This document shows, in pieces, positions 793 to 61,800 of a stretch of 64,000 bases of DNA (position 1 is the first letter of the stretch; each line of letters opens with the position of its first letter). The translations under genes were made by a program, and so were the position numbers. The notes under the pieces are model-generated. The model saw nothing but the letters and a program-made list of their open reading frames with translations. It was not told where the DNA came from and searched no databases. The DNA comes from Peronospora farinosa. Lineage: Eukaryota > Oomycota > Peronosporomycetes > Peronosporales > Peronosporaceae. The stretch spans positions 124,001-188,000 of the forward strand of contig CANTFK010000159.1 in the NCBI GenBank assembly GCA_947646735.1, read 5' to 3'.

Positions 793-1918
793 TTGGACGA
801 CGAAGATCAACAACTAACGAGATCGCCTGTTGTAATTAATGCGATTAGAGAAGTGGTTCGAGTACAAGATCGAACCTGTGAAGAGATCGACAATTCGAAG
901 ATGATTGAGATTAATGATTACGATCAAGAACAGTCCGATCGAGAGAGAAAAAAATCGGATAGAATTACGATCGAAGAAGTATCAACAAGAGATGTATCAC
1001 CTAGAGAGTCGGTATATGTTCACAAAAGTGGCGAGCTGCTCACTGAAGATGTGGATCAACACCTGGCGATTTTGCCGGAGATTGTTACACCTACAGCGGA
1101 AGTAACGATCGAGGATATCCAAATTGGCGATCCTGGAGTACCATTAACGGATGATCAAAAGCAGTTACGGCAGTTGATCTGGAAGAATCGTCATTTGCTC
1201 ATAGGAAAAGGTAACGCATTACCTCCCGCAGCACGCAGGCAATTGTCGGAGGGGCCAACCCGATCGCACAAAAAGTGCGACCTGTAGCACCCAAATTTCG
1301 AGATAAATTAGCAGTTCTGATCAAGGGGTTATTGTCCGCAAAGATCATTCGGCCATCTACATCACCATGGGCTTCGCCAATTGTGATAATAATCAAGAAG
1401 AACGGTGAAGATGTTCGACTATGTATCGATTATCGACGAGCAAATCAATTGACACGATTGATGGTGTATCCGATGCCATTGATCTGTGATTTATTGCAAG
1501 ATATGGATAAAGCTATGTGGTATTGTTCCTTGGATATGGCGAGTGGATTCTGGGTGGTAGAAATGACAGAGAGAGCGAGGATGATTTCTGCATTTATTAC
1601 ACCGTCAGGTTTGTTTGAGTGGTTACGAATGCCATTCGGATTGATAATGCTCCTCAAATCTATCAGCGATTGATTGACAATGCTCTATATGGGTATTTAA
1701 AAATCGGTACAAGTTCTGATTCAAATACAGCTGAATTGCCAAAGCCGATCGACGTATTTACTGAAGGTGAACCAGAGACTGATCCGAGACCATCGGTGTT
1801 AGGTCGGCGATCATATATTGACGATATATTGATACCTGCTACATCGTGGACGTCCCTTTATGAGAAGGTGGAACGATTGTTGGAAGCGTGCAATACGTGG
1901 AATTTATCAATCGTGTGA
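793..1918 (+). pseudogene. reverse transcriptase of subfamily A element, frameshifted
   Basis: Fragments in three frames (793-1287, 1275-1673, 1619-1918) together cover an RT. They show the pre-RT WKNRHLLIGKGNALPPAAR block, LCIDYR, WYCSLDMASGFW and FEWLRMPFGL, and the catalytic motif as YIDD in RSYIDDILIP. About nine codons present in the other copy are missing near 1250, and at least two further frame changes occur, so the fragment is non-functional. YIDD instead of the commoner YVDD/FDD is shared with the second copy and so is a family trait. Confidence 0.88.
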
Positions 1919-3240
1919 CTAAGAGTTTTTGGGGACGTCGTAAAGTAGATTACCTGGGTCATCAGGTTTTGCTTGAAGGTTTAGAAGCTCATCCAAAAGA
2001 TTTAGAATCTCTGGTGAACGTCCCATTTCCTCGGGCGTTGCGATCAATGCAGTCATTTTTGGGGAGTCTGAATTATTACAGCCGATTTATTGAGGATTTT
2101 GCGATTTATGCATCCGTACTTTATAAGCTGCGGGAGGCAGATTTTCATGAGATTAGCCGGGCAGGGGATGTTCAGATGGTCACTACTAACGCTGGACCAA
2201 ATTGTGATCGCCAGTCTCGTGACAAGTATAAGATCGATCAGGATTTTAAAAGTGGATCGAGAGATGGCTACATTATCGATCCAGAATCGAATACTGGGGA
2301 CGATCATGGTTGCGAGGGCAGAAACCTCTGGGAAAAGGCAACGATCGCATTCACTCTATTAAAAGCTAAAATAGCCACGACACCGATCCTGAAACATTTT
2401 GATCCAGAACGATCACCCGTAATTGTGGTGTATGCCAGCAAGTGGGCGATATCGGCCGCGTTGCTGCAAGAGCATGATGAAGTGTTTTGGCCGGTCACTT
2501 TCTCTAGTCGCACGCTGAAGCCTAACGAGATTAATTACGGGATGGTGGAGAAAGAGGTATTAGCTCTCCTCCGGATCCTGGATATCTGTTACACTATGCT
2601 GGTCTCACGAACGATCACAGTGCTTACGCGGCATTCGACGCTGGCTTGGTTATTGCAATCTTCTGGCCTTAACGAGAGGTTAGGAAGATGGGCTGCTCTC
2701 CTATCAAATTGGACATTAGAGATCCGCCGGAGTGAGAAAGGCGAAGACGAGATACTGGGTACCTTAGCTGCGAGTATAACTCCCCGCGAAGAAGTGGATG
2801 AGATGTTGATCGCAATTGCCCCGCGTAAGCAGCCTCGGCAAACAATCAGTATGCCACCACCCACGGTTGAAGTAGGTGAAGATCTGTTGGTAGTTAATTT
2901 CGATGGGTCAGCTAGAGTGAAAAGGAAGGGCGGGGCATATAGCGCGATCGTGTGGAAATTACCTGAATGGACGATCGTGGCTGCCGCTTCTGAATTCGCT
3001 ACTAATTTGACGGTGAATGAAGCGGAATATCGAGGATTACTTCTCAGCTTGGATCTGCTTGCAGATCAGACCAGGGGACGTGTAATCATTTGCGGCGACT
3101 CGAATTTGGTGATCAGGCAAATGCGTGGAGAGATCGACTGTAAGGCACCGTGTCTACAATTGTTGCGTCATAAAGCTATGGAGAAACTCCGATCGTGGCC
3201 AAACCACGAATTGTTGCACATGAAGCGGGACTGGAATTAA
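1888..3240 (+). pseudogene. RT thumb, RNase H1 and second (archaeal-like) RNase H
   Basis: One long open frame of 450 codons. Its first part continues RT (YLGHQVLLEGLEAHPKD, LNYYSRFIEDF). The middle is the usual Ty3/gypsy RNase H (VVYASKWAISAALLQ, NYGMVEKEVLALLRIL, RHSTLAWLL). After about 90 residues a separate RNase H follows (FDGSA, NEAEYRGLL, CGDSNLVIRQ). The last catalytic segment, SADRLAS, lies just beyond an in-frame TAA at 3238-3240 where the second copy has a sense codon. The frame is otherwise intact, the best-preserved part of this copy. Confidence 0.9.
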
Positions 3241-3285: not shown

Positions 3286-3297
3286 ACAATTGTAGTT

Positions 3298-5075: not shown

Positions 5076-5421
5076 GGACGATTGGATTGTTGGAGTGGTG
5101 AAGATATGTAAGAGGGTTACATATGTAGGTGGAAGGGATTATATGTGGAGTGAGTAATAGTGGTCACGAAATCAAAGATGGAGAAAGGGGATCACTACGA
5201 AGAGAAAAAAAGAAAGAAGAAGAGGAGGATTTTGAACGCGATCAACGGAGAAAAGGTGAAAACTATATGAAGATCGTGTTAATGTTATGGATCAAAAGGT
5301 TACTCGCGATTCACAAACTAACCAACCAAGCGAGGTATCGAATATCCTGGATGGTCGGTCATGGAAGGACGATACTGGTTCCTCCACGGCTCTTTTACAG
5401 TACTTATGGATAATGCGGTGA

Positions 5422-7293
5422 TCAGATTAGGTATGTCGGTCTGATTCGTGCGCAAACCAGGATACCATATCCTGACCTCGTTGGAACGAGGGAAATGAAG
5501 GAAAATCGGGTCCAGTAAATGTCCAGATCACACAGACCATCGATCATGCCTTGAAGAATCATGCCAAGCACTTTTATCCACATGGGACCTGATCGTGATC
5601 GCCGTTGTTTTCTCTCTTGAACCAGTGTGGACAAGGCAGGATCGAATCGACGGTGTTGGACCAATATCGGCAGAAAATGTGTCGCCTCCCAGAGTGCCTG
5701 GCAATGACGGACTTTAAAATCGTTATATAAGCGTACCAATTCTTGGAACCATCCAGTACACTCGAAAGAGATCGGATCGACCAGTTGTTCATACAGCAGC
5801 CAGGGCTGGCGAGCGTATATTGGCTGATCTGAGAAGAGGTGATCAACCCGGATGACCACTCGGAATCACTAGGTTTCTGGAGTTTTCCAGAAGGAACAGG
5901 GAATATGTAACCCCTAGGTTTTGAATAATGGTGGAAGAATGTTCCAGATCCAATTCTGAAATGCACAATAAGCTGATTCTGCGAGCGGACCAAGGAAGCG
6001 TATCGGATGACGCTCGAGGGACTCGATCACGATAACCTGAAATCCAAAGATCACGAGAGATTGTGGTATCGGGGAGATCCGAGAATTCCTCCGCTGTCAT
6101 CAATTGATTGCAAGGAATTCGAGGGTCGCTGTCGATACTGAGGCTATCCTCAGATTCACTTGAGGGTTCGCCAAATAAATCCGTCATCGATACTCGTGTC
6201 GGAGTCTTATGAGGGGACGTAACTGGACTAGGTGAGTCCACCACGATCGGTGAAGAAGGTGGAAATACCGGAGACCGAGCCACAGTGCGTCGTCGAGAAG
6301 CCGATCGAGAAGAGGATAACGCAGCCAGCTGAGAGTCGTCCGTCTGATCTGAACCATACCCAAAAGTATCTTCTTCACTCGAATCTTTAGAAGATGAAGG
6401 AGAGTTCCGGGGAGAATCTGGGGTTGGTGACCCAGAAAAATCGGGGGAATTTGTTTTTGATCTGGGCGAATGCGATCTCGATCTCGAATTGTCTGGACCT
6501 GATTGTGTTGAAGCTATGTAATTTTCAAGACTTGATCGGGCCGAGGTTGGGGAATGGTTGGGACTTGAATCATGGAGACTTGGGGACGTAGATGTTCTCC
6601 GAATATGCTTGAGCATAGGCTGATCCGAGTCATATTTTTTTTGCTGGCGCTTGTTCCGCTGTGGAGGTACTTCACTAGAAGCAGCGGCTGGTGACGACGT
6701 TGAGGGCGGCGGCCCGGTTTGGTGTACCAGACAAACGAGCGAAGAGAGAATTCCGATCCTTAACTTCCTGCACAAGTTGATCGCGCTCAATCCGGATCGC
6801 GTCAAGCTGAAGTCGGGTATCATGGAGTTGCTGTTTGAATTGGATGTAGCGAGACTTAAATTGGCTCTCGGAATTTTTGGCTCGAGCAGCCTGTTCATTG
6901 GCCGACTTGGCTGAATCAAGCGCAGCTGCCAGCTTGTTCTGGACGGCAGCCAGCTGGAATTGAAAACGCTCTTCGGCCTTGTGGCGAGCTGCGGTGGCGT
7001 CGAGTAGAGAGGAACGCAGATCCGCGTATACATCTTCAGCTGGCCGATCTGTTCCAATTCTTGGCGATACTCCTCCGCCAATCGAGTCGCAATCTGCAGT
7101 TCGCAACACAAGGTATGACACGAATTTCGCGAAACTTCCAGCCAGTTCACAATCATCTTGAATTTTGCGTTCCAAATGAGCGCAGCGAGTTTCTTGGGAG
7201 TGCAATGCATCGTAAAGTGCTTCGTAATTGTCCAATACGTCCTGATGGGTCGTAAAGTTGGTCAATTTGGGCCTTCAGAGCAGCCCGATCCAT
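5422..7293 (-). pseudogene. antisense ORF between chromodomain and 3' LTR (copy 1)
   Basis: On the strand opposite to gag-pol, an ATG at 7293 (MDRAALKAQIDQ) leads, with a frame change, into a coiled-coil-rich segment (about 7265-6675). A Ser/Pro/Asp-rich middle follows (6600-5850) and then a C-terminal domain at 5859-5422. The C-terminal domain shares ALWEATH, a basic RKQRRSRS run, GLCDLDI and a terminal tail with the antisense frame of the second copy (SQALWEATH, RKKRRSR, GHCDLDIF). Conservation of protein but not DNA words argues that it was once a gene. Several frameshifts make this copy a pseudogene. I do not recognise a known family; the coiled coil and basic patch would suit a nucleic-acid-binding or assembly role, which is only inference. 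Confidence 0.7.
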
Positions 7294-7495
7294 GGTCGGA
7301 ATGACCCTCGCCCGACCGCCAGGAAAACTTGCAAGTGATCGAGGAGTAGGCGCGATCGACAGTTGGTGGGAATCCACGATCCGGTTAGATGGAATAGAAG
7401 CTTGACGTTGGAATGTCAACATGTTGAGAACGGGAATTTGAGCGAAGGAATAGAATATGCACGGATACACCATCACTGTATGCCGGTGTTCAGCG

Positions 7496-7506
7496 CAGGG
7501 GACGGC
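7496..7506 (+). other. polypurine tract (candidate), copy 1
   Basis: The tract GCAGGGGACGGC lies immediately 5' of the TGTGG LTR start. The second copy has the matching ACAGGGGGCGGC before its own 3' LTR. Position and conservation are what is expected for the plus-strand primer site. Confidence 0.6.
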
Positions 7507-7985: not shown

Positions 7986-8089
7986 GATCCAGAAAGCCGG
8001 TTGCGATATGTAACCAGTTACAGATCGATCGTAACCTCGATCCAGAAAGCCGATCGCGAGATGTAACCGGTTACAGATCAATCGTTACC
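7984..8089 (+). repeat. 53-bp direct duplication in LTR
   Basis: Two adjoining copies of a 53-bp segment beginning TCGATCCAGAAAGCCG and containing the near-palindrome GTAACCNGTTAC. The two copies differ at a few positions. Confidence 0.8.
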
Positions 8090-11099: not shown

Positions 11100-11619
11100 C
11101 GGCTTACGCAGGTAGCCACCTGCCGCACAGTGTGCGAAGACGGGGTCTTAGCCGCACGCTTACACTGGAAGTGGAGAGTGATGTAGGCTCGGGCACGCTG
11201 AAAGGCGTACTGCATACCCTATTATCATACGGTCATTGTGACGATGACCCAGGATGTACAGCACACTGCAGGTGGAGGACGCGGAGCATATTGTGGGCCT
11301 CGGAGATGGTAATCGCGAATGCGGTAAAATCGACTTGTTGGAGAACACCACCGCCGCCCACGTGATGTGCCCGGTGAGAAGCGGCCGAAAGTCGGGAAGA
11401 AAAGTGTCCCAGGCCACTGCGCAATGGCGCAGCCTCAGAAGAGATGTTTGGCGCTCTCCACCTCTGGGCAGCCATGAGCGCAGAGAACATCGGAAGTCTG
11501 GTGCTAGTACTTTGATCAGACACTAAGTCCATTTAGTTGGAGGCAGAATTGAATGTCTGTGAGAATAGGCAGCAAGTCCCGATTAAGCAAACGTTCTTGT
11601 TTATAAAGGCTCGCGCATG
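11100..11619 (-). mobile_element. LINE (non-LTR retrotransposon) remnant, 3' portion
   Basis: Minus-strand frames show the cysteine-rich C-terminal zinc motif common in LINE polyproteins: LCAHGCPEVESAKHLF, followed after a stop by GCAIAQW. The stop sits where the usual Trp of HLFW would be. Another frame reads HCAVAWDTFLPDFRPLL. Several frames are needed, so the copy is dead. It continues the LINE at 12845-15944 across the inserted solo LTR. Confidence 0.6.
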
Positions 11620-18542: not shown

Positions 18543-21500
18543 TCACTTAGTATCGGATGCGGCATCGACGACACGGGGCTCAATCGTCAGAGAGCGCGCA
18601 AAACAGGAGTCGCTATCAACGAAAGGAACTGGTGAGCAAATGTGTTCCTAAAAATAAAAAACATAATACACGTATTAGTTATGGCAAGAAGTACACGACC
18701 AAAAGCTAGTTGGACTTACCAAAACACGCTTGTTCGTCGGTAACAAGTACGGTGTCTTCTGGAAAGAAAGTACTCGTTGAATGAGAGAGCTAATGGAGCG
18801 TATCTTTTTAAAGTTGATCAAGTCGCCCTCCACACGATCTGGGTACTCCTGCAGAGCGATCACGTTTTGAATGACAACACCCATATACGGGATCAGCGGT
18901 GGAGTCGCTTCCTTCGTGAACTTGTTAAGTGGCCGAGCACCCTTCTCCGTTAGCGGCACCAGCTTTTGCCACAAGTCGCGTGCTTGCGGTTGAAGTCGGC
19001 CCCATGTTTTCTTGAGCCGGAAGATTGAAGAATCATTCGATGCGTTCATAACGGCCATAAATCCATCAAGATTTTGCAGGGGAGAGAGCAGAACGCCAGC
19101 AACACGAATGAAATAGGCCAGAATTTCTGCACGTTGGTCCACATCGCTTCGTATCAGAATTTGGCCAACTACCCAAGTGGAAATGTGATTATGCAGCAGC
19201 CGTAGTCGCTGATACCCTGGTGTTTTCTCCGCGTTGCGTTTGGACGCCAACACTTCAGACACTAAAAACACAAATCCAAGGTAACGAGTGTTAGCAACTT
19301 TCAATGTTCGTTGAACTTTGTAACGATGCGACGACTAGATCGTACGTTACCTTTAATCTTGCTAAAAAAATAGTGCTGCATCAGAGTGATCTGCTGTGCG
19401 ATGATGCAGGGATCCAAATCCAAGATCCTTTTACAAAAATAATGACATCAATACGATGACATCAATACTATCAGTAAACTGCAACAGACGTACCATAATC
19501 TCGTCATCCGCTGCTCTACCGTATATGGACGGCCCACATTCACACCTCTGGGCTGCCAGGGCGTAATTGTAGTCGACCGTGCTTCCGATACGGAATCAAG
19601 AATCTCCTCTGGCTTAACCACAAATGACTTGTTTCCTTCTCTCTTCTTCCACACACCAGCGAGAGACAATCGGCGTCGCATCGCTTCCGTAATAATCTCC
19701 ATACCCGTCGCAACGCCGAATAGATCGTCATCCAAAAATTCAAGGTTTGGATTTGCTTGCTTCGCTGTGCAGATGAAATGCTTCAGCGACGTATAATCAC
19801 CCTCGCAAAAAGACAGCACCTGAAATTCCTGCACGCGGTTTGACTGACAAGCATCTACGAACTCAGGCAACAGCGACGCACTTAGCCATTGCGCACACTG
19901 TGGGTCCTCCTTGGCCAGCTCATTCGGTAAAGGGACCAGTTCCGTATACAATTCAGCAGCGTAATTGCACACAATCATATCACATTCCACACTGTGCTTC
20001 AGAATCTCCACCAACTTATTTAATGCACTCAGCAACACACGCCGCGCGTAGAACCCAGCTTCCGTTCCGATCGAATGCCGTTTCCAAATGTGTCGCAAAA
20101 TATCTACCGTGTCACGGAAGGTATCCCCTCCTCCATTACAAGCATACCCGCATGACCAAATGAGTGCACTTAACTCCTCCAGACGGTAGTTCTCATAGCG
20201 CAACAAAAGGTCGGCAATAGCGTCAAAAGTCCCTGCAATAATTTCCTCGGCTCCATTAATCTCTTCCGTCACAAGATCCTTGATGCTCAAACACTTTCCG
20301 GAAAGACCTTTGCATCCTGAAAGTGACATAGGAATGTCAGCCTGTTCCAAGTCATCAATGTCTTCATCATCAGAGTCATCATCGTTCTCGCCCATCTCAC
20401 TGTAATCCCCATGGACCATGGCGGAACTATTGTCAGTAGACGCGTCTTCACTCGCAAGCGCGTGCGAGGAGCGACTAGCTTCCGCTATAACCGCTGCGGA
20501 CTGTCCATATAAGTCACGTCTTGCCACATTTGCGTCGTCCGCCATTTTTGATACGAGATACGCGTATAACCCGTCACATCCATATAGAGCTGCATAATGC
20601 AAAGGTGTACGATACAAATCGCAAACTGCAGACATTTCTGCACCACTCTGCACGAGATAATTTATTGTAGAAATGACTGAGGACTTGTCCACATTAATGC
20701 TGCTCAGCAGACCAACCGTTGTCTTCTGACAGTGGTTGTCATTTTTGTTGCAGTTGCCGTGATGATCCGTTGTCGATGGTACAGACAAAGAAGCGTCTTT
20801 CTCCTTGACCATCCCGTGATCTTTCGCAACTGCGATCATCAATGGTGTCAACCCTTCACTTGTACGCACATCAACACCACAGCCCTTTTCTATAAGCAAC
20901 TGGCACGCACGCTGGCTTGCACTAGCTGCCGCAAAATGTAGTGGGGTCTCACCGTGTAGCGTGCGAATATTGGCTTGAGCGCCATAATCTAGTAGCCCCT
21001 CCACTACATTTGTACGGCCGCTCTTTGCTGCAAAGGCGAGAGCGCTCATGCCACACTGCCAGTTCCGCACATTCAAGTCAATATTGCTATCGACTTCCAT
21101 TATCACATCGATTCCACCAAGATAGCCTCTTTCTGCCAACAACATGATTGGGGTATTGCCATAGATGTCCACAGTATGGACATGCGCTCCATGCGTTAGT
21201 AGTTTCTTGATAATCAAAACGGCCTTATCTGAGTCGCTCAAGGTAGCCGATGTTCCATTTGTTGCTTTCGTCATGCTCATTGTTGTAGGCATCATGCAGG
21301 GAGACCCAACCATGTGCAGTGCACTGCGACCACACTCCCCGATAGTCTTTACCTTTGCGCCGTGCTGAAGCATGTATGAAACGATGTTAAAGTGTAAAGC
21401 ACTTACTGCGACATGCAGTGGCGAGTTACTTCCACACTCATGAGCAACATAATTCACGTCAGCACCGTTTGCCAGCAGCATTTGTACACTGAACACATCA

Positions 21501-23836
21501 CCGCGCTGGCATGCGTGCATCAACGCCACGTTCCACAGCGCTTTGTTCGATGTCAAAATTTTGAAATAACTGCTTTCAGGGATGAAGGCTAATCGATGGG
21601 GTGACGACGACTCAAGAAGCAAGGTCATTATGTCTTGGAATGGCCATAGTACCACATTTTGGCCATTCACTGTCACTAATACGTAACCTCGAGTGATGAT
21701 GGTTCCAACAGCTGAGTAGCCGTGAGGTGAAATATGCTCTACAATTGCACCGTAGCGGTATGTGGGTTCGACTTCAAACTCCAGTACACGTCGCCAGTCA
21801 CCATCAATTGAGAGCGTAATTTGGTCCTTGAAAATGTCTTCCAATACGGCGGGAATGTTGACGTTGCTGATGAAGTCGACTGCGTCTGTCAGAATATTAA
21901 GTGATGTTTCGTCATCATGGGATCTGCCGACGGCCCAAGACCCGTTCAGTTCAGTCAACAGGGTTTTGAGTGAGATTAGGTTCTCCAGTCCGCTGTTTGA
22001 CAGCACGTAAGTGAAAATCGGTATGATGTCATCGGTCTCGAGAGCCTCCAATTCAGTCGCCGCGTAGTGCTCGTCCGCATAAGTCGCCTGAATCTGTTTG
22101 ATCGTATTCGTAAGTACATCGTATTTTGCTGCGGGAAGAGGTACATGAGCAATTTGTGCAAGAATTCTTGATGCTTTCCTCCATTCCTTCCACGAGACCT
22201 GATGCAGCGGGATGTTAAAGTAAACTTGGTCTTTTCCTTGTAACCATCTAACTTTGCGGTTAATCGAGGATTCTTCCTCGTGGTACAGACGACGTAGACT
22301 CGAGTTAATTTTGTCCTGAAGCGGCACGAAGAGCACTTCTTCCACATGACGAGAAACAGCCGAACGCACTACGTCAAGCGATATCGGCTGCAAGGCTTGT
22401 TTCGTGTCTGCATATTTATCACTACTCATACCATCGTTGCCTGGATCCTTAAGTGCTGCCAAAATACGAGCGCCGTGGTCCGTCACGATGGAATCTGTCA
22501 GCGTTGCATGGAACTCTCGAAACTGACGAAGCGCTTCTGTGCTTTGAGACTCGTACGAGCTGATAAAGCTCTTATACTTGGCGGCTTCAGGGGACTTGCT
22601 TGTGTGAAGCACTTTCCGTAATTCCGCCACAATGCGAATGCTTCGAGCGTCAACGGTGCTAGTACGAACTCGATTTCCCTTTGACGTATCTCCCGATTGT
22701 AACAGACTGTTGGTAGCCGCTGTGCCAATAAGACCGGCCGACGGTGGAATTGTGCTGCTACCTCCTCCTGATAAGCTCTGCAGTAGACACACCCACGCGC
22801 TTGCATCGTCGTCATTAGATCCAGAACACACAAACGAAAAATCTTCGCCGGCTACTTCAAAACAGAATGGCCTCTTGGTCTCGTCCGGTTCCAAAAAGCG
22901 TACTGACAGCATGCCATCCTGTAAATGCATTTCTCCCCGCAGCTTGCCAAAATTGTTTCCTTTGTAGTACTGCAATGATGCCCAGTACTCACCTGTGGCA
23001 ATATTTGTTCGTTTAATCAGCACAAAATACCGTCGCTTCCATGTTTTCCTGAACGCATGTGTCAACAATCAGTAACATCCTCTTACCACAGCCACTAAAT
23101 CCACAACGTACATGACATTTGCCTGTTTGTAAAGCCACCCACTGCGCACCAATTCACGGTCAATACGTACAGACGAAGCAAAACTCTTCCTCGATTTCTG
23201 GCTGTTGCTCAAATAACTCGACGATAACTCTGTACTGTTCGTCGACATTCTCAAAAGGGTCTCCTGGTCGGGCACTCGGACTGTCTTGCCAATAGGCACA
23301 CCTCGTCTTGCTGATACTCTCCATGAAAATTTCTTATTGTTCATGTGTCGATGGGCCTTTAATGCGTCCTCTGCTGTCTGCAGCACGGGCACAAAGTCGT
23401 CCTCTTCGGCGTCGAACTCGCCTACCACGACTCTGGCGTCTATCCCGTCCTCTCCGTCACTCTTCATTTCCACTTCTTCCTGGTCTGCCACATCCAGACG
23501 AAAGCCACTGCTATCTCGAGCCGCTTCCAATACAGGAATATCTCCATCAGAGCCTCCTCGTCGTCTCGATGAGATGGCACGTGGTAGGTTTTGACGTCGC
23601 AACGACATTTGGTCAACTCGTGATGCTCCTTGAGCTCTCAAAGACGGCAGAGGTGGCGGTGGTGGGGGTCGCTTTGCGACCTTCTGGAGCTGCACGGGGG
23701 ACGCCAAATCGTCTATTAAAAAGGTACTGAAGCTCAACTGACGCGCAGAATTCGTTGCAGGGGACGATATTGAGCGTTCCATGTCTCGTTTGAGAGTATC
23801 TGACGTCGATCGATGTAGGTCGCTTGTGCGGTTCAT
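18543..23836 (-). CDS. PH-VPS9-PDZ-like-ankyrin-RasGEF multidomain protein
   Basis: Exons on the minus strand: 23836-23112, 23048-19494, 19427-19351, 19261-18720 and 18647-18543. All junctions are GT-AG and phases close, giving 1667 residues. Order: disordered N-terminus with a PPPPPPLP run; PH domain at about 227-335 (SGWLYKQ..KTWKRRYFVL), split by intron 1; VPS9 domain at about 460-611 (WLQGKDQ, KYDVLTNTIKQI, DDIIPIFTYVL, GLENLISLKTLL), the Rab5-type exchange fold; a PDZ-like segment at about 655-735; ankyrin repeats at about 746-1085; an acidic linker; a RasGEF N-terminal-like segment at about 1175-1245; and a CDC25-type RasGEF at about 1400-1660 (IFRLKKTW, TPPLIPYMGV, INFKKIRSI, ending SLTIEPRV). 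The protein probably links membrane phosphoinositides with Rab5-like and Ras-like GTPase activation; substrates cannot be told from the sequence. Confidence 0.9.
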
Positions 23837-44980: not shown

Positions 44981-45833
44981 TGTACAGCAAAAGAGCGAAT
45001 TTGGCAAAGTGTGATCACATATTTTCGGTTAAAACCGAAATGGTCAATATTGATGAATCGCGATCCCGCAGAAGAAGTTTCGAGACGATTGCAAATGGGA
45101 TGGAAAACAGTGTGGTGGAGTTCGCAGTTCTATGTGAAGTTAACTATGGCCTAGAACTACGCAATTGCGATCTCCGGTATTTTGGATGGCGATCCGCGTG
45201 AACGCGATCGCTAAGAAGGAGGATTGGTACATCCAAGTATGTGGAAGACGGTCTGGTGTGGATCACGTCGCTATGGAAGACTGGAATGAGGTGGACATGA
45301 CATGTCATATAGATTCATATAGATGGACCATTTCACATGACCCGAGGAACGGTGAAGAGGACAAGTCGTGATCAGGCGGACCGCGATCCGATACTACTTA
45401 TTAGTACCGCGATCCGATACTAAAATGGTATTAGATCCGATCGAGGTAGCGATCCAGATCGCGGCGATATTGGAGTGGACCATATTACAAGATCTGATTT
45501 TTCCGAAAGGGTGATACGTGGCAATAGATCCTGAGCTACAGATAGGCAAGATCATAGGATTGGTAGTTGATTGGTTAACATTAAAGAGAGCTCAATTTGC
45601 TTCTAAGTACACGTGTCGACTTCTCTATTCCGGGCAGTATATTTGGCCTCAAGACGCCAAGAATATCGACTACAAGTGCACCCTGGATTGTTTGGCCAGG
45701 TAAAGGAATTCTCAACACAACAACTCATCTGCAATCGGACGCAGAAATACAAGTAAGGGCAAGGCAAGCAAGTGCAAGACGAATTAAGTGGTCAGAAGGT
45801 TCTGCTCAAGTGGTCAGAAAATTCAAGCTTCGC
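44981..45833 (+). repeat. truncated LTR (subfamily B), interrupted by the next element
   Basis: It begins TGTACAGC and aligns with the minus-strand solo LTR at 11620-12844 from its first bases (AATTTNGCNAAGTGTGATC, TTTTCGGTT). It shows the same order of internal landmarks up to CTCAAGTGGTCAGAA. At 45833/45834 the alignment stops exactly where the TGTGG of another LTR begins. Its missing 3' part should lie beyond the window, on the far side of the nested insertions. Confidence 0.82.
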
Positions 45834-47001
45834 TGTGGTGAAGTGCTGTTTTTGCGATATGGGGACCCCATAATCCAGTTGGATTCGGAGTATAGACCGT
45901 GGGTCAGGGACAGGAGACCAGAGAGACAGGGGCCTCGAAGGGGAGCGACCGTTGGCGGAGAACAATCTGCAGGACCCACAGAAGAAAAATCAGTATCAAG
46001 GTACCGGTGAACCGGTGCCGAAGGGAGTGGACCATGTCTTTCCATTGATCGACCCGGCCCCTCGTTGGTAGGCCCAGGCCCCTCATCGGTCGACCTGGGT
46101 CCCTCAGTGGTCAACCCGGTCCCTCAGTGGTCGACCCGGTCCCTCATTGGTCGACCCAATCCCTCATCGGTAGATCTGGATCCCTCAGTGGTCGACCTGG
46201 GTCCCTCAGTGGTCGACCCGGTCCCTCAGTTGGTCGACCCGGTCCCTTATCGGTCGACCCGGTCCCTCATTGGTCGACCTGGGTCCCTCGTCGGTCGACC
46301 TCGGCTCCTCGGGGTTCAGCCACTCCTGACCAGTTAACACAAGGATCAGACCAGTCGACGCAAGGAATCAGAGCTTCAGGCAAGGATAGAGTAAAGGAGT
46401 TAAAAGGATAGGACTATATCAAATACTACTCAATTTGCGATCTACGTGGCACGACTCCGTCACCCAAGAAGAACTTGCTCTAAGCTACTCACTGTTTCAG
46501 GAAGGGATATATTTTGGCTCCCCGTCGAAGACAGTTGTGTAGCGAAGTTCAAGTGCGAATAGAGCTCCAGGATATATTTGGCCTGTGAGATCGTTCGAGT
46601 AGCAACAACCCCCAAGACCCGCTATCGGAAGCGGCCTCCCTTACCTCACGATCCGGAAGCAAAGTAAAGGTCAGGCGGTTGATAAGAAGGAAAAGGCCAG
46701 GGATAAGCTCCCTGAAGAAATTTGGCTCCAAGTCCACTCTCGACAAGGTCTATCGAGTGGCCACCTACCGGCCCACCGAGTGAAGCATATTTACTCGAGG
46801 CCCCCCAGGTCTACCTCCCTCAAGGCAGACGTCTACATCTTCACCAAGTCCTCCGAAGAGTGCAACCCGCCAGCCGACGGGTATACAAGGTGAGAGAAGG
46901 TCCATACGCGGCATCGGGGTATCCCCTACGACAGTCGTCAATCCGGAACAGTGAGTGGTTAGGGATCTCTTCATACAGTTTTGATAACCCACTCCACCAC
47001 A
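45834..47001 (+). repeat. 5' LTR of subfamily C element
   Basis: 1168 bp with TGTGG...CCACA ends. It contains a roughly 20-bp GGTCGACC tandem array at 46054-46316, then a unique part, then the block GACGGGTATACAAGGTGAG shared with the other LTRs. The first 540 bp match 56844-57395 with about four substitutions, one single-base indel and one array unit difference. Confidence 0.9.
46054..46316 (+). repeat. GGTCGACC tandem array in U3 of 5' LTR
   Basis: About a dozen units of 20-21 bp of the type GGTCGACCCGGTCCCTCA plus two variable bases. The palindrome GGTCGACC is the most constant part of each unit. Confidence 0.93.
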
Positions 47002-50627: not shown

Positions 50628-51620
50628 GTGCGAAGAGAAGGTGAATTGGCAGGGGGGGCCGCCCAGGAGCGGAGTGTAGCTAATGAAGACCTACCTGCAG
50701 TGATCACTACCGAGAAGAAGGAGGCCGAACTGGTAGACTTGTTACAGGCAGATGACCAGATGTGTTCTTTCAAGAGTGGGGAACTTTGGGCCGAGGACAT
50801 AAGACCAGGATGGGCGGTCATACCGGAAGTAGACCCCTCATCCGAAGGCATTGCGCTAGAAGATATACAGATTCCTGATACAGATGGGAACACTCCTGAA
50901 GAGGTGGACCGGTTACAACAAATAATATGGAAGAATCGGCATCTGCTGATGGGTAAAGGTAACGCCTTACCCCCGGCCGCCCGAGGAGCAATATGCGATA
51001 TCGATGTGGGGAACGCAAGGCCGATCGCGCAACGTGTACGGAAGGTGGCCTCTCAATTTAGAGAGAAGCTAGCCGACCTGATCAAGGGACTGTTATCGGC
51101 AAAGATCATTCAGCCTTCCACCTCGCCATGGGCCAGACCAATTGCGATTATCGTGAAGAAGAATGGGGTCGATATTCGATTGTGTATCGACTATCGGTTG
51201 GTGAATGATCTCACCCAGCTTATGGTATACCCTATGCCGTTGATTAACGAATTACTGGAGGACTTGGACGGAGCTTTGTGGTACTGTTCTCTTGATATGG
51301 CGAGTGGTTCTTGGATCGTCAGTATGACCGAAAGGGCGAGACTAATCTCGGCCTTCGTCACGCCGCTGGGATTATTTGAATGGATTTGGATGTCTTTTGG
51401 GCTTAAGAATGCGCCTCAGATATATCAAAGGTTGCTGGATAATGCGTTATATGGATTTTTACGGATTTCGCCAGGGACTGCCACAGAGAAATCAGAGGAT
51501 TTGTTCGCAACAGGGGAACCAGATGCAAAATCGGGTCCCTAAATATTGAGTCGACGTTCATACATTGACGATAAATTTGTTCCTGCCGAATCGTGGGACT
51601 TATTATGCCAGAAAGTGGAG
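50628..51620 (+). pseudogene. reverse transcriptase of subfamily C element
   Basis: One frame to 51542 covers the N-terminal linker (WKNRHLLMGKGNALPPAAR) and RT fingers/palm (KIIQPSTSPWARPIAI, LCIDYRLVNDLTQ, WYCSLDMASGSW, FGLKNAPQIYQRL). A TAA at 51540-51542 precedes the catalytic SYIDDKFVP motif in the same region (about 51560-51590). A C-terminal shift follows. Confidence 0.88.
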
Positions 51621-51636: not shown

Positions 51637-53222
51637 GTGACTATTGAAAGTGTCGGTCAGTGCCGTCAAGAGTACGTGGGGGTGTCGGAAGGTCGAGTAC
51701 CTTGGACATCGAGTGTCCAAGGAGGGACAGAGAACCACCCAAAGGACCTTCAGTCTTGGGTCGACCTATCTCTACCGACAACGTTGAAGGCTAGGCAATT
51801 ATATCTTCAAGGCCTTAATTACTACAGAAGATATATTGAAGATTATGCCGTATACACGTCGATCCTCTATGAACTGAGAGAGGTGGATTTTCACGCGTGG
51901 AGGTGCAAATTAAAGGCTAACGATGAAGTGACGGCCAAGGAAGAAGACGAAGAAAAATGGTCGAAGGTACAAGTAGCGTTTGCCATGCTCAAGAACAAGA
52001 ATGCTACGGGCCCATCCTACGACATTTCGACCCGGTTAGAGAGGCAGTTATTATTGTCTACGCAAGTGATTGGGCCATCTCGGCGTCGTTGGTGCAGAAT
52101 TACGACGGCCTGTACATGCCAGTAATGTTCGCGAGCCGAACCCTCAAGTCAAACGAGTTGAACTATAGCACAGTAGAAAAGGAAGTGCTGGCGTTGTTAC
52201 GAATATTGGAGACTTATTTCACGATATTGGTCACCCGACCCCTCAAGGTTCTGACGAGACATTCTACACTAGCCTGGCTAGTGAAGTCTTTGGGGTTGCA
52301 AGGCCGCTTGGGAAATTGATTCTGCTCTCTTGTCCCAGTGGACTTTGGAGATTGTAAAATGCAAGAAAGGCGAAGACCAGGTACTGGGGGCTTTAGCTGC
52401 AAGTATTACGCCTCGAGAAAATGTAGACTCAATTCTGTCGTCAATTGCTCCCAAGAAGCAATCCAGGCAGAAGGTCGACCTACCTACGACCAGGAACGAA
52501 GAACTGTATGTGATGAGTTTCGATGGGTCGGCCCGGGTGAAGCAAGGAGGAGGTGCCTGCAGAGCTATGTGTGGAGACTTCCTGCATGGACTATAGTCGC
52601 AGCTGCGTCGAGATATCTCGACAAGTCTACAGTGAATGAGGCTGAATATGAGGGCATGTTACTGAGATTTGACCTGTTGGAGCCAACGGAGCGACGGCGT
52701 TTGATTATTTGTGGAAACTCCAATTTGGTTGTAAGACAAATGCGTGGAGAGATTGAATGCAAAGCTTCAGGTTTATCCCCGTTGCGGGCCAAGGCGTTGA
52801 GCAAGCTCCAGACGTGGCCCACCCATGCATTTTTACACGTGAAACGAGACTGGAATCAGAGCGCGGACCAGTTGGCCAGTGCGGCTTTACATCAGCAGCA
52901 AGGGGGCGAATCGATACCGAAAGGAGAGTGGCCAGGTCTAGAAGCAATCAATCGGCTGCCAGAGGTGTTGTTCCCTAGAGACCGGGGTCAGTCGGTCAAG
53001 GTATCCGCGGTGACGAGGTCACTGTTCCCCGTCAGGATATCTGGAGAGGTCATGCAAGAAGATGTGGCACAACAGCTCCGGATGGACAGGATCCGAGATG
53101 CGCAAGAAGAGGAGAGATGGGTACGCGAGTTGAAGGCATATATGAAGGGAGACTGGAACGACTTGTCTGTGGAATCGGCCAGAAACTGCATGCAAAATGT
53201 CGGAAGATTACGAGATAAGTGA
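51637..53222 (+). pseudogene. RNase H and second RNase H of subfamily C element
   Basis: RNase H1 is seen at about 52020-52320 (VYASDWAISASLVQ, LNYSTVEKEVLALLRIL, RHSTLAWLVKSLG). The second RNase H starts MSFDGSARV at about 52510, moves to another frame, and continues TVNEAEYEGMLL, CGNSNLVVRQ and NQSADQLASAA. The catalytic Asp of GDSNLV is Asn here (GNSNLV), so this copy would be inactive even without the frameshifts. Confidence 0.87.
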
Positions 53223-54377: not shown

Positions 54378-54662
54378 ATGGAGCAGATCGAGTCGACTTC
54401 AACGATGTCTGTTACCAGAAGACAGCTGGTGCGGGAAATGGAAGAGGGCGAGCATGAAGTCGAAGATATTTTAGAGAGTCGTACAGGCAAGAAGACTCGG
54501 TATGGGAGGCAACAACGAGAATTCCTCGTGCAATGGAAGGGACACCCTGACCCCTCGTGGGTGGAAAAAGTGGATCTGAATTGCGGAGCCTTACTCCGGG
54601 ACGTCGAGCGCAAGAAGACAAGCCATAACCGCTTCGAAGTAATGCAAAGGCATGAAAACTAG
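54378..54662 (+). pseudogene. chromodomain of subfamily C integrase
   Basis: HEVEDILESRTGK, REFLVQWKGHPDPSWV and a closing helix to HNRFEVMQRHEN form a chromodomain, aligned with the one at 4850-5075. It is separated by a frame change from the integrase tail (FQLKPVKEFPDRP at about 54310-54360). Confidence 0.88.
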
Positions 54663-55033
54663 CCGGCGGTAGCAAGTTTCTTGGAAGGTGGACCGAGTCC
54701 CTCAATGGTCGGCCCAGCCCCTCGTTGGAAGATTTAGGCCGCCTGCGGGGCGGCCTTGAACTTTTAAGAGTTAGAGGTATAGGAGAATGGAGAACAAAGG
54801 AGGGAGATTACCAAGATCAATTAGAACAGAGGAAAACATGGCAAGAGGAGATAGAAGATGGACAAGCACACAAAATAGGATCGAAGGGAAAAGAAGATTC
54901 ATGTTCAAAGGAAGACCTAAACGGATGGCCCAAACTTGCCTTTGAGGCGTGGAACTAGCGCGCCAGGATGGGGCACAGAAGACAACCGATACTGGGTGAG
55001 CCACGGCCACGCGGAATCCGACACCCGAAGGGC

Positions 55034-56730
55034 CTAAAGCAGGTCGACCGGGTCCGACCCCTCTTCACGACCAGGGAACCAATAAACCACACGGCGGGTT
55101 CGAGGAAGATGACGGAAGAAGGGATCCAGGAAGATGTCGAGATCGCAGTGGCCCTTGCTCATCCCAATGAAGATGAGGTCGACCACCTCCCGCCAAGCTC
55201 GAGTTGCCCGACTCCGACGCTTCTTCCGCGCGTTGTAGTAGGACGCGAGGAAAGAGTTCGCTCGCGCCTGGTCCTTGGAGATTCAAAAGCAGTGGGTCGC
55301 CTCCCAAAGAGCTTGACTATGCTCTTCGTCAAACTGGATGTAGGCCGCTGCCAACTGGGCGAACCAGCCAACAGGTCGGAAGGAAACGGGTTGAATGGGA
55401 ACACGAGCTTCTACCCAAGGTTCCGCCGCCAGCAATCTCTGGATCATCGGGGGGTTCACTAACGACTTCTTCCATTTGGGAGGGCATTCGAGGTTTCCGT
55501 CCGGAGGACCGAACCAACGCCAAGGTAGATCCAGCTGGTCGACCAAGTCTTTTGGAGACATTGTTACAATGCACCAAGATTTGACCAGGTCGACCGGCCA
55601 AGGCGCCACTTCCGCGGCAGAGAAGGTCTTCAGCTGCATGTACCCTGGGATGATGACATCCTTGGGGAGCGAGCAAGAGTCGGTCGAAAGGGGCAAATTG
55701 TTGTCCGCAACAGTGGGCGCGCTCTTTTCTTTCTCCGCAGACGACTCAGTCTCCGGGTTCGACATCCCGAACATCGCCCGTTTCAGCGAGAGGCCGGAAG
55801 CCGAGGTGGCACTCAATGGGGGAGCGGACGTCCGCGGAAGACGTAAAGAGCTTGCACTGGTGGGGCGCCGACCGGAAGAACGAGGCTTTCCAGGGCCGCC
55901 CGAAGTGTTTCGCTGTCGTCGCTGAGGTCGTCCTCCGAATAGTCCAGCGTGACAGGAGAGCGGCCACCAGAGACTTCCGACAGCGGTATCGCGGATGTGT
56001 CGAGCCTCGGAGGCTTGGAAACTTTGGCAGGCACACGGGGTGACGGCCGCCTGGACCGTTTACCAAGAGCTTTCGCCGGCCTCGAAGGGGAACATACGGC
56101 CGGGGGTGAAGCTGCCGAAGGAGTATCTGGTCCCGGAGGTGGCCCATCGGAGAAGTCGACGTGATCAAGCTCTGCAGCAAGAAGCGAGTAACGACTTCGA
56201 ATGTGGTCTATCTTCCATCACAGACGATCCATGAGTGTCGCCTCGCGCTGAAGAGCTTCGCGGAGTTGGATCACCAGCCGGGAATTGTCGCGTAACGTCT
56301 CTTCCAAGCGCTCATAACGGGTGGCCAATAAGGTGGCCGAAGGGTGAACGACACCTAGCCGACCCTCGCAGTCATCTATGCGGCGAGATTGCGCTTCCAC
56401 AAGAGCTTGCAGTTCCTGCAAAGCTACACGCACGTCGACTGGCGCGGAAGACGGGTTTTCAACCATGGAGACCAACGTGGCAGAAGAATCTGCCGTCTTG
56501 ACAGGAGGCAAAGCGGTGAAGACGGGTGAGCTATCAACGACGATAGTTTCGGCAGAATTCAACGGTGAAAATACCGGCCCGGGAAGGTCGACCAAGGACG
56601 CCTCTTCGAATGTAGGGTCAACCGAAGGCGCGGATGCGATCGAGGTCGGCTCTTCAGACGGTGGGTCAGCGGACGGTGGGTCAGCAGACGGTGGGTCATC
56701 AACCGGGGAAAGACATGGCTGGAACGACAC
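55034..56730 (-). pseudogene. antisense ORF between chromodomain and 3' LTR (copy 2)
   Basis: On the minus strand the frame from 56730 reads a Pro/Ser/Asp-rich start (DDPPSADPPSADPPSEEP), then a coiled coil (QELQALVEAQSRRIDDCEGR). A single TGA at 56218-56220 follows, then a basic/acidic middle (KRSRRPSPRVPAKVSKPP, LDYSEDDLSDDSE). After one frame change the C-terminal domain runs 55816-55034 with one TGA at 55283-55285. This domain has GWFAQLAAAYIQF, SQALWEATH, ARKKRRSRAT, GHCDLDIFLDPFF and a terminal DPVDLL. The last 260 residues match the antisense frame at 5422-5859. No known family was recognised. Few lesions over 1.7 kb suggest selection on this strand until recently. Confidence 0.72.
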
Positions 56731-56832: not shown

Positions 56833-56843
56833 CAGGGGGCGGC
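56833..56843 (+). other. polypurine tract (candidate), copy 2
   Basis: ACAGGGGGCGGC lies directly before the TGTGG of the 3' LTR and matches the equivalent tract at 7496-7506. Confidence 0.6.
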
Positions 56844-57395
56844 TGTGGTGAAGTGATGTTTTTGCGATGTGGGGACCCCATAATCCAGTTGGATTCGGAG
56901 TATAGACCGTGGGTCAGGGACAGGAGACCAGAGAGACAGGGGCCTCGAAGGGGAGCGACCGTTGGCGGAGAACAATCTGCAGGACCCACAGAAGAAAAAT
57001 CAGTATCAAGGTACCGGTGAACCGGTGCCGAAGGGAGTGGACCATGTCTTTCCATTGATCGACCCGGCCCCTCGTTGGTAGGCCCAGGCCCCTCATCGGT
57101 CGACCTGGGTCCCTCAGTGGTCAACCCGGTCCCTCAGTGGTCGACCCGGTCCCTCATTGGTCGACCCAATCCCTCATCGGTAGATCTGGATCCCTCAGTG
57201 GTCGACCTGGGTCCCTCAGTGGTCGACCCGGTCCCTCAGTGGTCGACCCGGTCCCTCATCGGTCGACCCGGTCCCTCATTGGTCGACCTGGGTCCCTCGT
57301 CGATCGACCTGGGTCCCTCGTCGGTCGACCTCGGCTCCTCGGGGTTCAGCCACTCCTGAACAGTTAACACAAGGATCAGACCAGTCGACGCAAGG
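56844..57395 (+). repeat. 3' LTR of subfamily C element, 5' part
   Basis: It matches 45834 onwards almost perfectly up to CAAGG at 57391-57395, where the TGTAATGGG of another LTR begins. The tandem array at 57064-57340 has one unit more than the 5' LTR. Confidence 0.92.
57064..57340 (+). repeat. GGTCGACC tandem array in 3' LTR
   Basis: Same 20-21 bp units as at 46054-46316, with an extra unit containing TCGATCGACC near 57298-57318. Confidence 0.93.
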
Positions 57396-57759: not shown

Positions 57760-58809
57760 ATGCCCGAGTTTGATATGAGCGAATCGTCGTACTTTGACGC
57801 GCCAGATTTATTTCTAAAGCACGCGACCTTCTTCCATCTTACTGGTGTTGAGTGGGATGCCCTTAATCGCCTCGCGGCGATATCGGGAGAGGCATTCGTC
57901 GCGTCGTTGATGAGATCAGCGACCCCTGACGCGCAACGTCTCGCCATACATGAGTTTATGGCACGTGAGCTCGCCGAATCCAACCGGTGAGGCTTAACTC
58001 CCTCGCTCCCTTCACGTAATGAGGCCGTGAAGATGGAAACCTCCTCCTACTCTGGAGAAGGTAAGGACCGGTTATCGCTGAATCGGTGGTTCCGAGAAGT
58101 TGATATCGCCATCGCCTCAAGACTTCTTGAGGCTCCACAGGCGAAGGTCAACTTTCTTCTTTCCCGCCTCACCGGGAAGGCCAAGGAGTGGGCCCTTGGT
58201 AAACTCGTTGTGGACGAGCACGCATTCCCCACCTTGGATACCATCCAGGACGATCTCCGTCTTGCCTTCGAGCCACCACAAGAGGAGAAACTGGTGCGAT
58301 CAAGATTCCTGTCGATGCGACAGGGTAAAATGGCGATGCACGACTACGTACAGATGGCTAGGCATCTGGCGTCGTGTATTATCACGCACCCCATGGACAT
58401 GTACACGCAGGTGAATGTCTTTGTGGATGGTATGCGTGAGGGGCAGACCCGCTTATCGCTGGAGCGCGCCGAGCCTGCCACATTGGAGGAGGCATTTGCC
58501 ATCGCACTCCGTGAAGACTTTAGGGTCACAAAGGCATATGCCAAACCCTCGGTCGTCAGCGTTCCCCGGCCTTCTGGACCAGAACCTATGGAGATCGACG
58601 TTATTGAGTCGTCGGGTGACCGGCGACGTGTCTTTCATCATAAAGGTGACGCTCGCACCGGGCGTCCAATGGTTTGCTTTCGTTGTCGCAAGCCAGGACA
58701 TCGCGCGGCAGAGTGCCGTGCGCTAGCACCGATATCGGTGCAAGTAGTGGACGCCCATCATGAGGGTGCTGTACCGGCCGCACGTCCAAAAAACGGTCGG
58801 GACCAGTAG
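57760..58809 (+). pseudogene. gag of second-family element, one in-frame TGA
   Basis: One frame from the ATG at 57760 to a TAG at 58807-58809, interrupted only by TGA at 57988-57990. The capsid-like domain (about 58040-58520) shows [33 protein letters not shown] and [18 protein letters not shown]. The nucleocapsid knuckle [14 protein letters not shown] (CCHC) is at about 58674-58715. A start at 58030 downstream of the TGA is possible, which would make the first 76 codons a separate short frame. Confidence 0.85.
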
Positions 58810-58830
58810 GTGCAGGGCGCCGTACTGGTT
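58788..58830 (+). promoter_or_regulatory. -1 ribosomal frameshift signal between gag and pol
   Basis: The heptamer A AAA AAC (58788-58794) is in the correct gag phase (CCA AAA AAC). After a 6-nt spacer, GACCAGTA (58801-58808) pairs with TACTGGTT (58823-58830). The loop can extend the stem (GGTG 809-812 with CGCC 818-821). The gag stop follows at 58807-58809, and the -1 frame is the open pol frame. All three elements of a canonical signal are present; use in vivo is inferred. Confidence 0.75.
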
Positions 58831-61800
58831 GGAACGGAGGTCCGGGTCCCCCGGTGGCAGCCCAACCTTCCAGTCCTCCTGCGCTACGCGCACGGTTAAA
58901 TGCCACCACTACGAGTGGTGATTCACGACTGATTATTGTCAGTTTACATGTCGCCGGCGTCCGGCGACCTCTGCGAGCACTCCTGGACTCAGGAGCAACA
59001 AATAATTTCTTTCGTGAATCTTGTTTATCGATGCTGCCTCCAAGCATTCAGGTCCGTGAGGGACCTGGCCAAGTCGTCGTCAAGTTGGCTGATGGGAAAC
59101 CACACCGCGTATCGCGACGCGAAGTGTCGTTGCCGTATACGTTTGATGACTTTCGCAGTAATGATGATTTCTTGGTGATCGCGATGAATTATGCATTCGA
59201 TTGCATACTGGGCATGCCATGGTTGGCACGTTATAAGCCCCAGATCGACTGGTTAGCCAGATCAGTGAGACGTCGACGCAAGTTCGATGTCAGTGAAGTG
59301 TTTACCCATCTCTTGGTATCTCCAAGTGACTGGCCGAACGTCACAGTCGTGGATCGTGATTCCACGACGTTGGCGGTGCACAGAGCGAGCGATGGCCCTC
59401 TCTGCACTGCTTGTGCTGTTCTTCGAGACACAAGTGACAGTGACTCCTCGCTACAGAGCGAAGAGGACGACGAGGACGACGCGGTCGAACAGGGGTTCCC
59501 GCGCGTCATTAATGCGGTTGAACAGGGGTTCCCGCACGTGAATGCAGTGGTTGAACCGGGGTTCCCATCTGCACCTATTGTGGTCGAGCAGGGGCTCCCA
59601 CAAGAGCATTGTGGCGACGAGCAAGAGCTCGCCAGCGAGTGTGACGTGGACGGACAGGAGTCCTCACGCGAGAGCATGATGGTCGAACCGGGGTTCCCAT
59701 CATCACCCACTGTGGTCGAACCGAGGTTCCCACATGGGCATATTGTGGTTGAGCAGAGGCTCCTACACGAGTACAACGTGGACGGACAGGAGTCCCCACG
59801 CGAGAGCATGATGGTCGAACCGGGGTTTCCATCATCACCCACTGTGGTCGAACCGAGGTTCCCACATGGGCATACTGTGGTTGAGCAGGGGCTCCCACAC
59901 GGGTTTACGGCGGCCGAGCAGGAGCTCCCGCACCAAGTGTCGACGGTCGAGTTTGGGGTACTCTCGTTCAGTGTTTCCGGCATCTTGGATGACGACATCC
60001 AGTGCCTAGAGGGGGGTGATGGTTTATCACCTGAATGCGGTTCGCCAGCTTCGAGTAGTGACTCGAAGCACGATGGGGACAACAGCACCGAGAATTTAGT
60101 GTTGGAATGTGTCCACGCTATCGTGTACGTGGAAGGGAGTCCACAAAGGCGCCAATATATCGAGGTCGAGAGTCCTCCTCGTAATGCGTCTTCCATTACA
60201 AGTCTTCCAGGGCTTTCCTGGAAGCATTTCCTACGTGACCTTAAGGGAGGCACTGTGAAACAAGTGTGTCTAATCACCAACGAGGTGGTTACCGTGGCAA
60301 ACGAGGAGCATATGGCGCGTCCTCGAAGCGCTGAGCCGAAGTCTGCGCGTGAAGAAAGGTTTGCATCACAGTCATGGGAGGCTCTGCGAGAGTCTGGTAA
60401 CCCCGTCTACGACATTGCTCGTGAGTATGCAGACGTGTTCCCGGACAAGATCACGGATGAACTTCCTGCGGACCGTGATGTTCGGCACGAGATTGATCTC
60501 GTGCCAGGGTCGAAGTATTGTGTGACACGGCAGTGGCCGTTGACTCGAGATCAAGTCGAAGCTATTGACGCATTCTTCGAAGGCCGCCGCAAAGCGGGTC
60601 ATGTGCGGGAGAGTATCTCACCACAATCGAGTCCAATCTTCTGCGTGAAGAAATCTACGGGAGGCTGGCGGATAGTGCATGCGTTCAATAAGTTGAATGA
60701 TGCCGCTATTCCGCGCAAACGCCAATTCCCAGGAAGGACATGGTGCTGAATTCCATGTCAGGAAGTGTAATCTTCAGTGCTATCGAATTGACCGATGGCT
60801 TTTACCAGATTTTGATGCGCCCGAGCGATATCCCACTCACCGCGGTGAGCACCCCGAGAGGCATGTTATGGGAGTGGCTGGTTATGCCACAAGGGTTGAA
60901 GAACGCTCCGGCCACTTTCAATCGTATTGGTGTCTCAAGTGTTGAGACCTCTTCGGAACTTTGCTCCAAGTTATTTTGACGATATCTTCGTCCATAGTCG
61001 CGCCGAGGGCAATCTCAACGATGTCCAAGTTCACCTTCAACACCTGAAGCAAGTGTTTCAAGTTATGCGGGACAACAAGTTGTACGCGAATCTCAAGAAG
61101 TGTGTCTTTTGTGCACCGGAGATTCCGGAGTTAGGTTGCTATGTGAGTAAATTGGGAGTTCGAGCTGATCCAGAGAAGGTGTCGTCCATCTGTTCGTGGC
61201 CCACGCCCAAGAACCCTACGGAGCTGCGCCAGTGGCTCGGCTTCGCTAATTATTTGCACAAGTATACGAAGGATTATGCTGGTTCTATCCAGCCTTTGTC
61301 GTCACTCTTGAAGAAAGACGCCACGTGGTTGTGGCGTCCCGAGCACCAAGCAGCCTTCGAAGCAGTAAAGAAGAGCCTAGCGTCAGCGCCAGTCCTGGTC
61401 CTACCAGACGATTCCAAGCCGTTCCACGTGGTTTGCGACGCCAGTGATTTTGCAATCGGTTGTGCCCTCATGCAATGTGATGATGAGGGCCGTGAACGAG
61501 TCGTGAGTTATCAGTCGCGACAGATGAAGCCAGCTGAGAAGAACTATCCGGTTCACGACAAGGAGTTATTAGCGATGCGCTATGCACTCATCAAGTTTCG
61601 CGTGCATCTCCTTGGTGAAAGTACGTTTGCTTTGTACACCGATCATGCATCGCTGCGCACAGCGATGAAGAGCCCACACCTGTCCCAACGGATGGCACGA
61701 TGGCTCTCATTCTTCTCTGAGTACAACTTCGTCGTGCATTACAAGCCAGGCAAGACCAATATTCTCGCTGACGCCTTGTCACGACGTCCCGACTACGATC

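What the first reader, a model, noticed from the sequence alone, without database searches (positions are those of the whole stretch)
55034..56730. Conserved antisense gene between integrase and 3' LTR in two Ty3/gypsy subfamilies
Both related elements (5422-7293 and 55034-56730) have, on the strand opposite gag-pol, an ORF with the same layout: coiled coil, disordered acidic/basic middle and a C-terminal domain. Shared landmarks are GWF, ALWEATH, a basic RKxRRSR run and G(L/H)CDLDI. The DNA around these motifs has diverged in its favoured short words, yet the protein motifs persist, so this is unlikely to be a shadow frame; there is no pol gene on the other strand in this interval. Antisense ORFs at this position are known in some plant Tat-lineage elements. 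For an oomycete chromodomain element I know of no characterised protein of this type.
Basis: partly seen in the sequence, partly recalled or inferred. Interest (0 to 1): 0.88.

Follow-up and report, generated by a model that had tools for sequence, protein, structure and literature searches.

The report
Antisense gene in oomycete retrotransposons
A large family of jumping genes in a downy-mildew genome carries an extra protein gene written backwards between its enzyme genes and its right-hand end; the gene is kept working by natural selection and looks like an unstudied accessory protein of the element.

Summary
Both window copies are broken, but the same antisense gene is open elsewhere in this genome: frames of 599-742 aa in 10 of 33 family-A copies held, 718 aa in B, 873 aa in C, 675 aa in D, 728 aa in E. 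In all five families the opposite strand beside it carries integrase and the end of pol. Mutations private to one copy are near neutral in its frame (omega 1.00 and 0.88); variants shared by three or more copies are constrained (0.44 in A, 0.34 in B). In A constraint begins about at the likely ATG and reaches 0.19-0.20 in the C-terminal domain; integrase gives 0.15, the intergenic gap about 1. Integrase and antisense protein favour the same five-family tree. Relatives occur in seven Phytophthora species and in Peronospora. The protein has a coiled coil, a disordered middle with an SRSxxRR-type motif and often a SUMO-interaction-like motif, and a helical domain without a Pfam match. I read it as an antisense-expressed regulator of the element, convergent with plant Tat/Retand antisense ORFs; function is inferred.

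The parts
54908..56716 (-). Family A antisense gene, decayed copy (frame change near 55891 plus stops)
   Evidence: tblastn of an intact family A protein: 266 aligned aa at 56688-55891 (82.7%) and 328 at 55891-54908 (89.6%); ATG at 56716 inferred from the VVPAMS context
5303..7422 (-). Family B antisense gene, decayed copy in several frames
   Evidence: tblastn of an intact family B protein: six pieces between 7422 and 5303
45834..46365 (+). 5' LTR of the family A element
   Evidence: self-BLAST 45832-46365 vs 56842-57395, 95.3%; TGTGGTGAAG edge at 45834
56844..57395 (+). 3' LTR of the family A element; presumed site of the antisense promoter; G-rich tract just before it
   Evidence: the same LTR-edge string stands 84-320 nt upstream of the antisense ATG in A (127), B (84), C (85) and D (320)
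50628..51539 (+). family A pol fragment: reverse transcriptase
   Evidence: PF00078 E 3.8e-9
52338..53219 (+). family A pol fragment: second RNase H (RVT_3)
   Evidence: PF13456 E 1.8e-7
54378..54659 (+). family A chromodomain, end of pol, tail to tail with the antisense gene
   Evidence: PF00385 E 3.7e-5, 24 bits against a cut-off of 25.1
1888..3237 (+). family B pol: RT RNase H followed by a second RNase H
   Evidence: PF17917, PF17919, PF13456
4650..5072 (+). family B chromodomain
   Evidence: PF00385 E 3.7e-9

Best explanation
It is a genuine accessory protein gene of Chronos-like Ty3/Gypsy elements, transcribed against gag-pol from a promoter in or beside the 3' LTR. The protein multimerises through its N-terminal coiled coil, uses its disordered acidic/basic middle (conserved SRSxxRR motif, frequent SUMO-interaction-like motif) to dock on nuclear host factors, and uses its helical C-terminal domain with a long basic helix to recognise the element's own nucleic acid or proteins. 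It thereby tunes transcription or silencing of its own element family, as HTLV HBZ and the plant Tat/Retand antisense ORFs are thought to do. Shown: open frames, purifying selection, fixed position, co-inheritance with integrase, domain layout. Inferred: promoter site, nuclear action, partners, regulatory role.
For: Open frames in five families. Pooled dN/dS 0.43 (A, 30 rows) and 0.485 (B, 14 rows) against 0.81-1.13 in the four frames that do not share its wobble positions. Private variants near neutral, shared variants constrained (Fisher p 1.8e-9 in A, 1e-5 in B); in A constraint starts about at the ATG; integrase and intergenic controls behave as expected. Pol ends tail to tail in C, D and E. 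Integrase and antisense protein favour the same split in all five quartets. C-terminal domain modelled with pLDDT 85.3, pTM 0.83, almost all helical. SIM-like pattern downstream of the SRS motif in 13 of 21 representatives, 2.7 expected from shuffles. The antisense ATG lies 84-320 nt from the LTR edge in four families.
Against: No expression data. No recognised DNA-binding or catalytic domain (in one search only 25 of 98 families were shown). CTD net charge only 0 to +12 in four families, so DNA binding is not evident. Seven of 21 representatives have no SIM-like match on either side of the motif, and motif and place were noticed before they were tested. The first block of codons of the family A gene after the ATG is only weakly constrained (0.67). 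The regulatory function rests on analogy.
Confidence: 0.55

Rival explanations
1. Real antisense protein, but it acts with integrase/chromodomain as an integration or targeting cofactor, or as a particle component, rather than as a regulator.
For: It occurs next to a chromodomain integrase and is co-inherited with it; a coiled coil plus basic region suits assembly.
Against: Antisense transcription is an odd way to make a particle protein in gag proportions (argument, not a test); between families it changes faster than integrase (D against E dN/dS 0.24 vs 0.05).
Confidence: 0.3
2. The antisense RNA is the working product (dsRNA or small-RNA control); the ORF only rides along.
For: Antisense transcripts of retroelements can exist without coding capacity and may act themselves (passages of PMC7264820).
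Against: Amino-acid-level selection on shared variants, in A strongest in the C-terminal domain and absent upstream of the ATG; protein similarity kept where synonymous sites are near saturation.
Confidence: 0.05
3. Shadow frame or chance ORF with no function.
For: Both window copies are broken; the frame sharing wobble positions also has low pooled dN/dS (0.525, 0.516) and low shared omega (0.56, 0.41).
Against: That other frame holds 10-19 (A) or 19-32 (B) stops per copy, the antisense frame 0-5 (A, including a shared native stop) or 0-7 (B); five families with long open frames.
Confidence: 0.02
4. A captured host gene or a nested second element rather than a stable part of this lineage.
For: Origin unknown; gene models of relatives in Phytophthora are called hypothetical, unnamed or uncharacterised.
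Against: Same place and orientation in five families with the integrase tree matched. The genomic contexts of the 34 database proteins were not read, so a host copy is not excluded.
Confidence: 0.05

Closest known systems
Antisense additional ORFs (aORF-3R) of plant elements: Retand TRP28 (PF04195), maize Grande gene23, rice RIRE2
   Same: Antisense gene between pol and 3' LTR; tandem repeats in that interval in some families (here inside the ORF); a regulatory role is proposed for the plant ones (abstract, discussion and passages of PMC11963269; passages of PMC7264820)
   Different: No PF04195 match in this whole genome at E up to 10; host is an oomycete; the elements carry a chromodomain, whereas Retand is described as non-chromovirus (abstract)
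Chronos Ty3/Gypsy elements of oomycetes (PMC5348765)
   Same: Dual RNase H, integrase and chromodomain in pol
   Different: The 12 passages seen speak of ORF1 and ORF2; the words antisense, opposite and additional open do not occur in its main text
HTLV-1 HBZ
   Same: Antisense protein gene with a promoter in the 3' LTR of a reverse-transcribing element (start of the abstract of PMC10186651 in the listing; HBZ details recalled)
   Different: HBZ is a bZIP protein (recalled); its sequence was not compared here

Membership tests
Chronos (oomycete Ty3/Gypsy) | Second, plant-type RNase H next to the native RNase H | tested here: met
   PF17917/PF17919 then PF13456 in family B; PF13456 alone in a family A fragment. 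That PF13456 here is the plant/archaeal type is inferred; families C-E were not tested for it
Chronos (oomycete Ty3/Gypsy) | Chromodomain at the end of pol behind integrase | tested here: met
   PF00385 above cut-off in B, slightly below in A and C; integrase domains in C. D and E show a similar end by eye only
Chronos (oomycete Ty3/Gypsy) | Place in the reverse transcriptase tree | not tested
   No RT tree built
Plant antisense aORF-3R | ORF between pol and 3' LTR on the strand opposite gag-pol | tested here: met
   (LTR pair seen in A only; LTR-edge string in B, C, D)
Retand TRP28 proteins | Transposase_28 domain PF04195 | tested here: not met
   no match in the genome at E up to 10; remote kinship below HMM level not excluded
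HBZ-like antisense regulators | Antisense promoter in the 3' LTR | not testable with these tools
   no transcript data; ATG 127 nt from the LTR edge in the window copy
HBZ-like antisense regulators | bZIP domain | tested here: inconclusive
   Pfam scan of 32 members: no bZIP among the 25 of 98 families displayed, which are mostly coiled-coil families

The most novel reading that the evidence does not exclude
A new lineage of antisense-encoded regulators, independent of plant TRP28 and retroviral HBZ, which multimerises and docks on the host SUMO/silencing machinery through a conserved SIM-like motif to protect or throttle its own element family; its rapid change between families while integrase stays 74-92% identical would reflect family-specific self-recognition.
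Probability: 0.25. Interest if true: 0.82.

Novelty: new variant of a known kind. Interest (0 to 1): 0.64.

Why it matters
Antisense accessory genes behind pol are known from flowering-plant elements and a few retroviruses. The same layout, with a protein that shows no match to the plant domain, in dual-RNase-H chromodomain elements of an oomycete would be a third case, and adds to the convergence already noted between oomycete and plant retrotransposons. Such genes are numerous in this genome (152 and 149 matches, two lists that overlap and include fragments), and they give a defined, selected protein with which to ask how retroelements regulate themselves or counter silencing in oomycetes.

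Full report
What was checked. Neither is one intact ORF. Against intact relatives the first copy is read in two frames meeting near 55891 and the second in six pieces. The first element has LTRs at 45834-46365 and 56844-57395, 95.3% identical, and pol fragments with reverse transcriptase, a second RNase H and a chromodomain just under Pfam's cut-off on the plus strand. For the second no LTR pair was found in window 1-12000; its pol has two RNase H domains and a chromodomain.

Family in the genome. A DNA search with the first copy gave 73 matches (40 of 139 candidates scored), with the second 47 (40 of 67 scored). A protein search with the family A C-terminal domain gave 152 matches (146 of 551 candidates scored), with the family D domain 149 (146 of 536). 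The two lists overlap, include fragments and are lower bounds. Open antisense frames of 599-742 aa (some include codons upstream of the likely start, from which they measure about 599-629) occur in 10 of the 33 distinct family A copies held. Open copies of 718 aa (B), 873 aa (C), 675 aa (D) and 728 aa from the first ATG of a 798-codon frame (E) define further families. Of the 42 matches at 40% identity or less in the capped list, 22 lie in frames of 686 codons or more without a stop, 15 of these over 900. In C, D and E the opposite strand carries integrase and the end of pol, and the antisense frame ends tail to tail with it (the chromodomain was tested by Pfam in A, B and C only). The nearest database protein is an unnamed Peronospora effusa product, 98% identical to one copy, so the genome is probably that species or a close relative (inference).

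Selection. Pooled pairwise dN/dS in the antisense frame is 0.43 (A, 30 rows, 435 pairs) and 0.485 (B, 14 rows, 91 pairs). Four other frames give 0.81-1.13; the fifth, which shares third codon positions, gives 0.525 and 0.516 but holds 10-19 or 19-32 stops per copy. Variants found in one copy only behave as neutral or nearly so (omega 1.00 in A, 0.88 in B), as decay after insertion should. Variants shared by three or more copies are constrained (0.44 in A, 0.34 in B; Fisher p 1.8e-9 and 1e-5); 2 of 326 shared variants in A and 0 of 95 in B are stops; the wobble-sharing frame shows 0.56 and 0.41, its shadow. In A the codons upstream of the likely ATG, mostly in the LTR, give 1.39; from there the values are 0.67, 0.32, 0.47, 0.31, 0.19 and 0.20 (the block edge is one codon before the ATG, codon 114). 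B gives 0.43, 0.18, 0.41, 0.26 and 0.36 from only 10 to 40 shared variants a block. Integrase of the same copies gives 0.15 shared and 0.87 private, with 4 of 61 shared variants stops; the gap between the two genes gives 0.90-1.08 shared in the three frames counted (18 rows). Copies share history, so p values are approximate.

Between families. Third codon positions match at 0.25-0.38 (chance 0.26-0.27), second positions at 0.54-0.75 (four families); synonymous change is near or at saturation. D against E have similar dS in integrase and antisense domain (1.39 and 1.61), with dN/dS 0.05 and 0.24. The antisense domain therefore changes faster but stays constrained: 31.5-56.7% identity where integrase has 74.2-91.8%. 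In all five quartets of A-E the favoured split is the same for both proteins: B with C, D with E (one copy per family, 9-23 informative columns per quartet in integrase). The gene has travelled with its pol.

Relatives elsewhere. Three protein searches gave 34 proteins (the first and third scored only the candidates sharing most words). Named ones are from Peronospora effusa, Peronospora matthiolae, and Phytophthora megakarya, fragariae, fragariaefolia, capsici, palmivora, ramorum and nicotianae; they are called unnamed, hypothetical or uncharacterised, save one called Lebercilin domain-containing. Their genomic context was not read. A tree of 34 rows is (its limits are told under Tried and rejected).

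Protein. N-terminal coiled coil (Pfam and PDB matches shown are mostly generic coiled coils); disordered middle with an acidic run followed by an LxxSRSxxRR-type motif in 26 of 39 proteins; an ELM-type SIM pattern within 60 residues downstream in 13 of 21 representatives against 2.7 expected, and upstream instead in the family A protein; then a domain of about 250 residues with nearly invariant W, RR and CDxD, modelled almost all helical with pLDDT 85.3 and pTM 0.83 from 32 rows, one 33-residue helix holding the basic run. Disorder was read from composition, not predicted by a tool. The middle carries tandem repeats with periods that are multiples of three in C, D and E.

Mechanism. The antisense ATG lies 127 nt from the 3' LTR edge in A (window copy and an intact copy), and 84, 85 and 320 nt from the same edge string in B, C and D. 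An antisense promoter in or beside the LTR follows as the simplest inference. The regulator reading rests on layout, on motifs typical of nuclear proteins (general knowledge), and on analogy with plant antisense ORFs, of which a nuclear product and antisense transcription from an upstream promoter are reported for maize Grande (passages of PMC7264820). Integration cofactor or particle protein remains open.

Known work. Plant Retand elements carry antisense ORFs with PF04195 (abstract, discussion and passages of PMC11963269); PF04195 has no match in this genome at E up to 10. Chronos elements are described with dual RNase H and chromodomain and without an antisense ORF in the passages seen (PMC5348765). 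Two brown-alga papers that mention Chronos were seen in passages and report no such gene for it there. Searches whose listings showed no oomycete antisense ORF; subscription papers and Repbase notes are outside the library.

Noticed in passing
46043-46308 and 57053-57338: The LTRs of the family A element contain an array of roughly 20-bp imperfect tandem repeats.
   Followed up: no
58027-60749: Behind the 3' LTR lies another retroelement with Ty3-type capsid, zinc knuckle and aspartic protease, with 33-bp-spaced repeats and a 349-codon open frame on the opposite strand at 59231-60280.
   Followed up: no
8124-8782 and 11620-12275: Inverted pair of related stretches, 78% identical over 682 columns, beyond the family B antisense gene.
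   Followed up: no
L025; G000:C254:256750-258920: A family A antisense gene piece runs directly into a family B piece at base 258225, a possible recombinant or nested insertion.
   Followed up: no
P0019 (586 aa, database protein): Reverse transcriptase and RNase H in one frame with the antisense C-terminal domain, a rearranged copy or assembly fault.
   Followed up: partly
18675-23068 minus strand: Host gene-like frames: PH, VPS9 and ankyrin repeats, then a RasGEF domain in a neighbouring frame.
   Followed up: no
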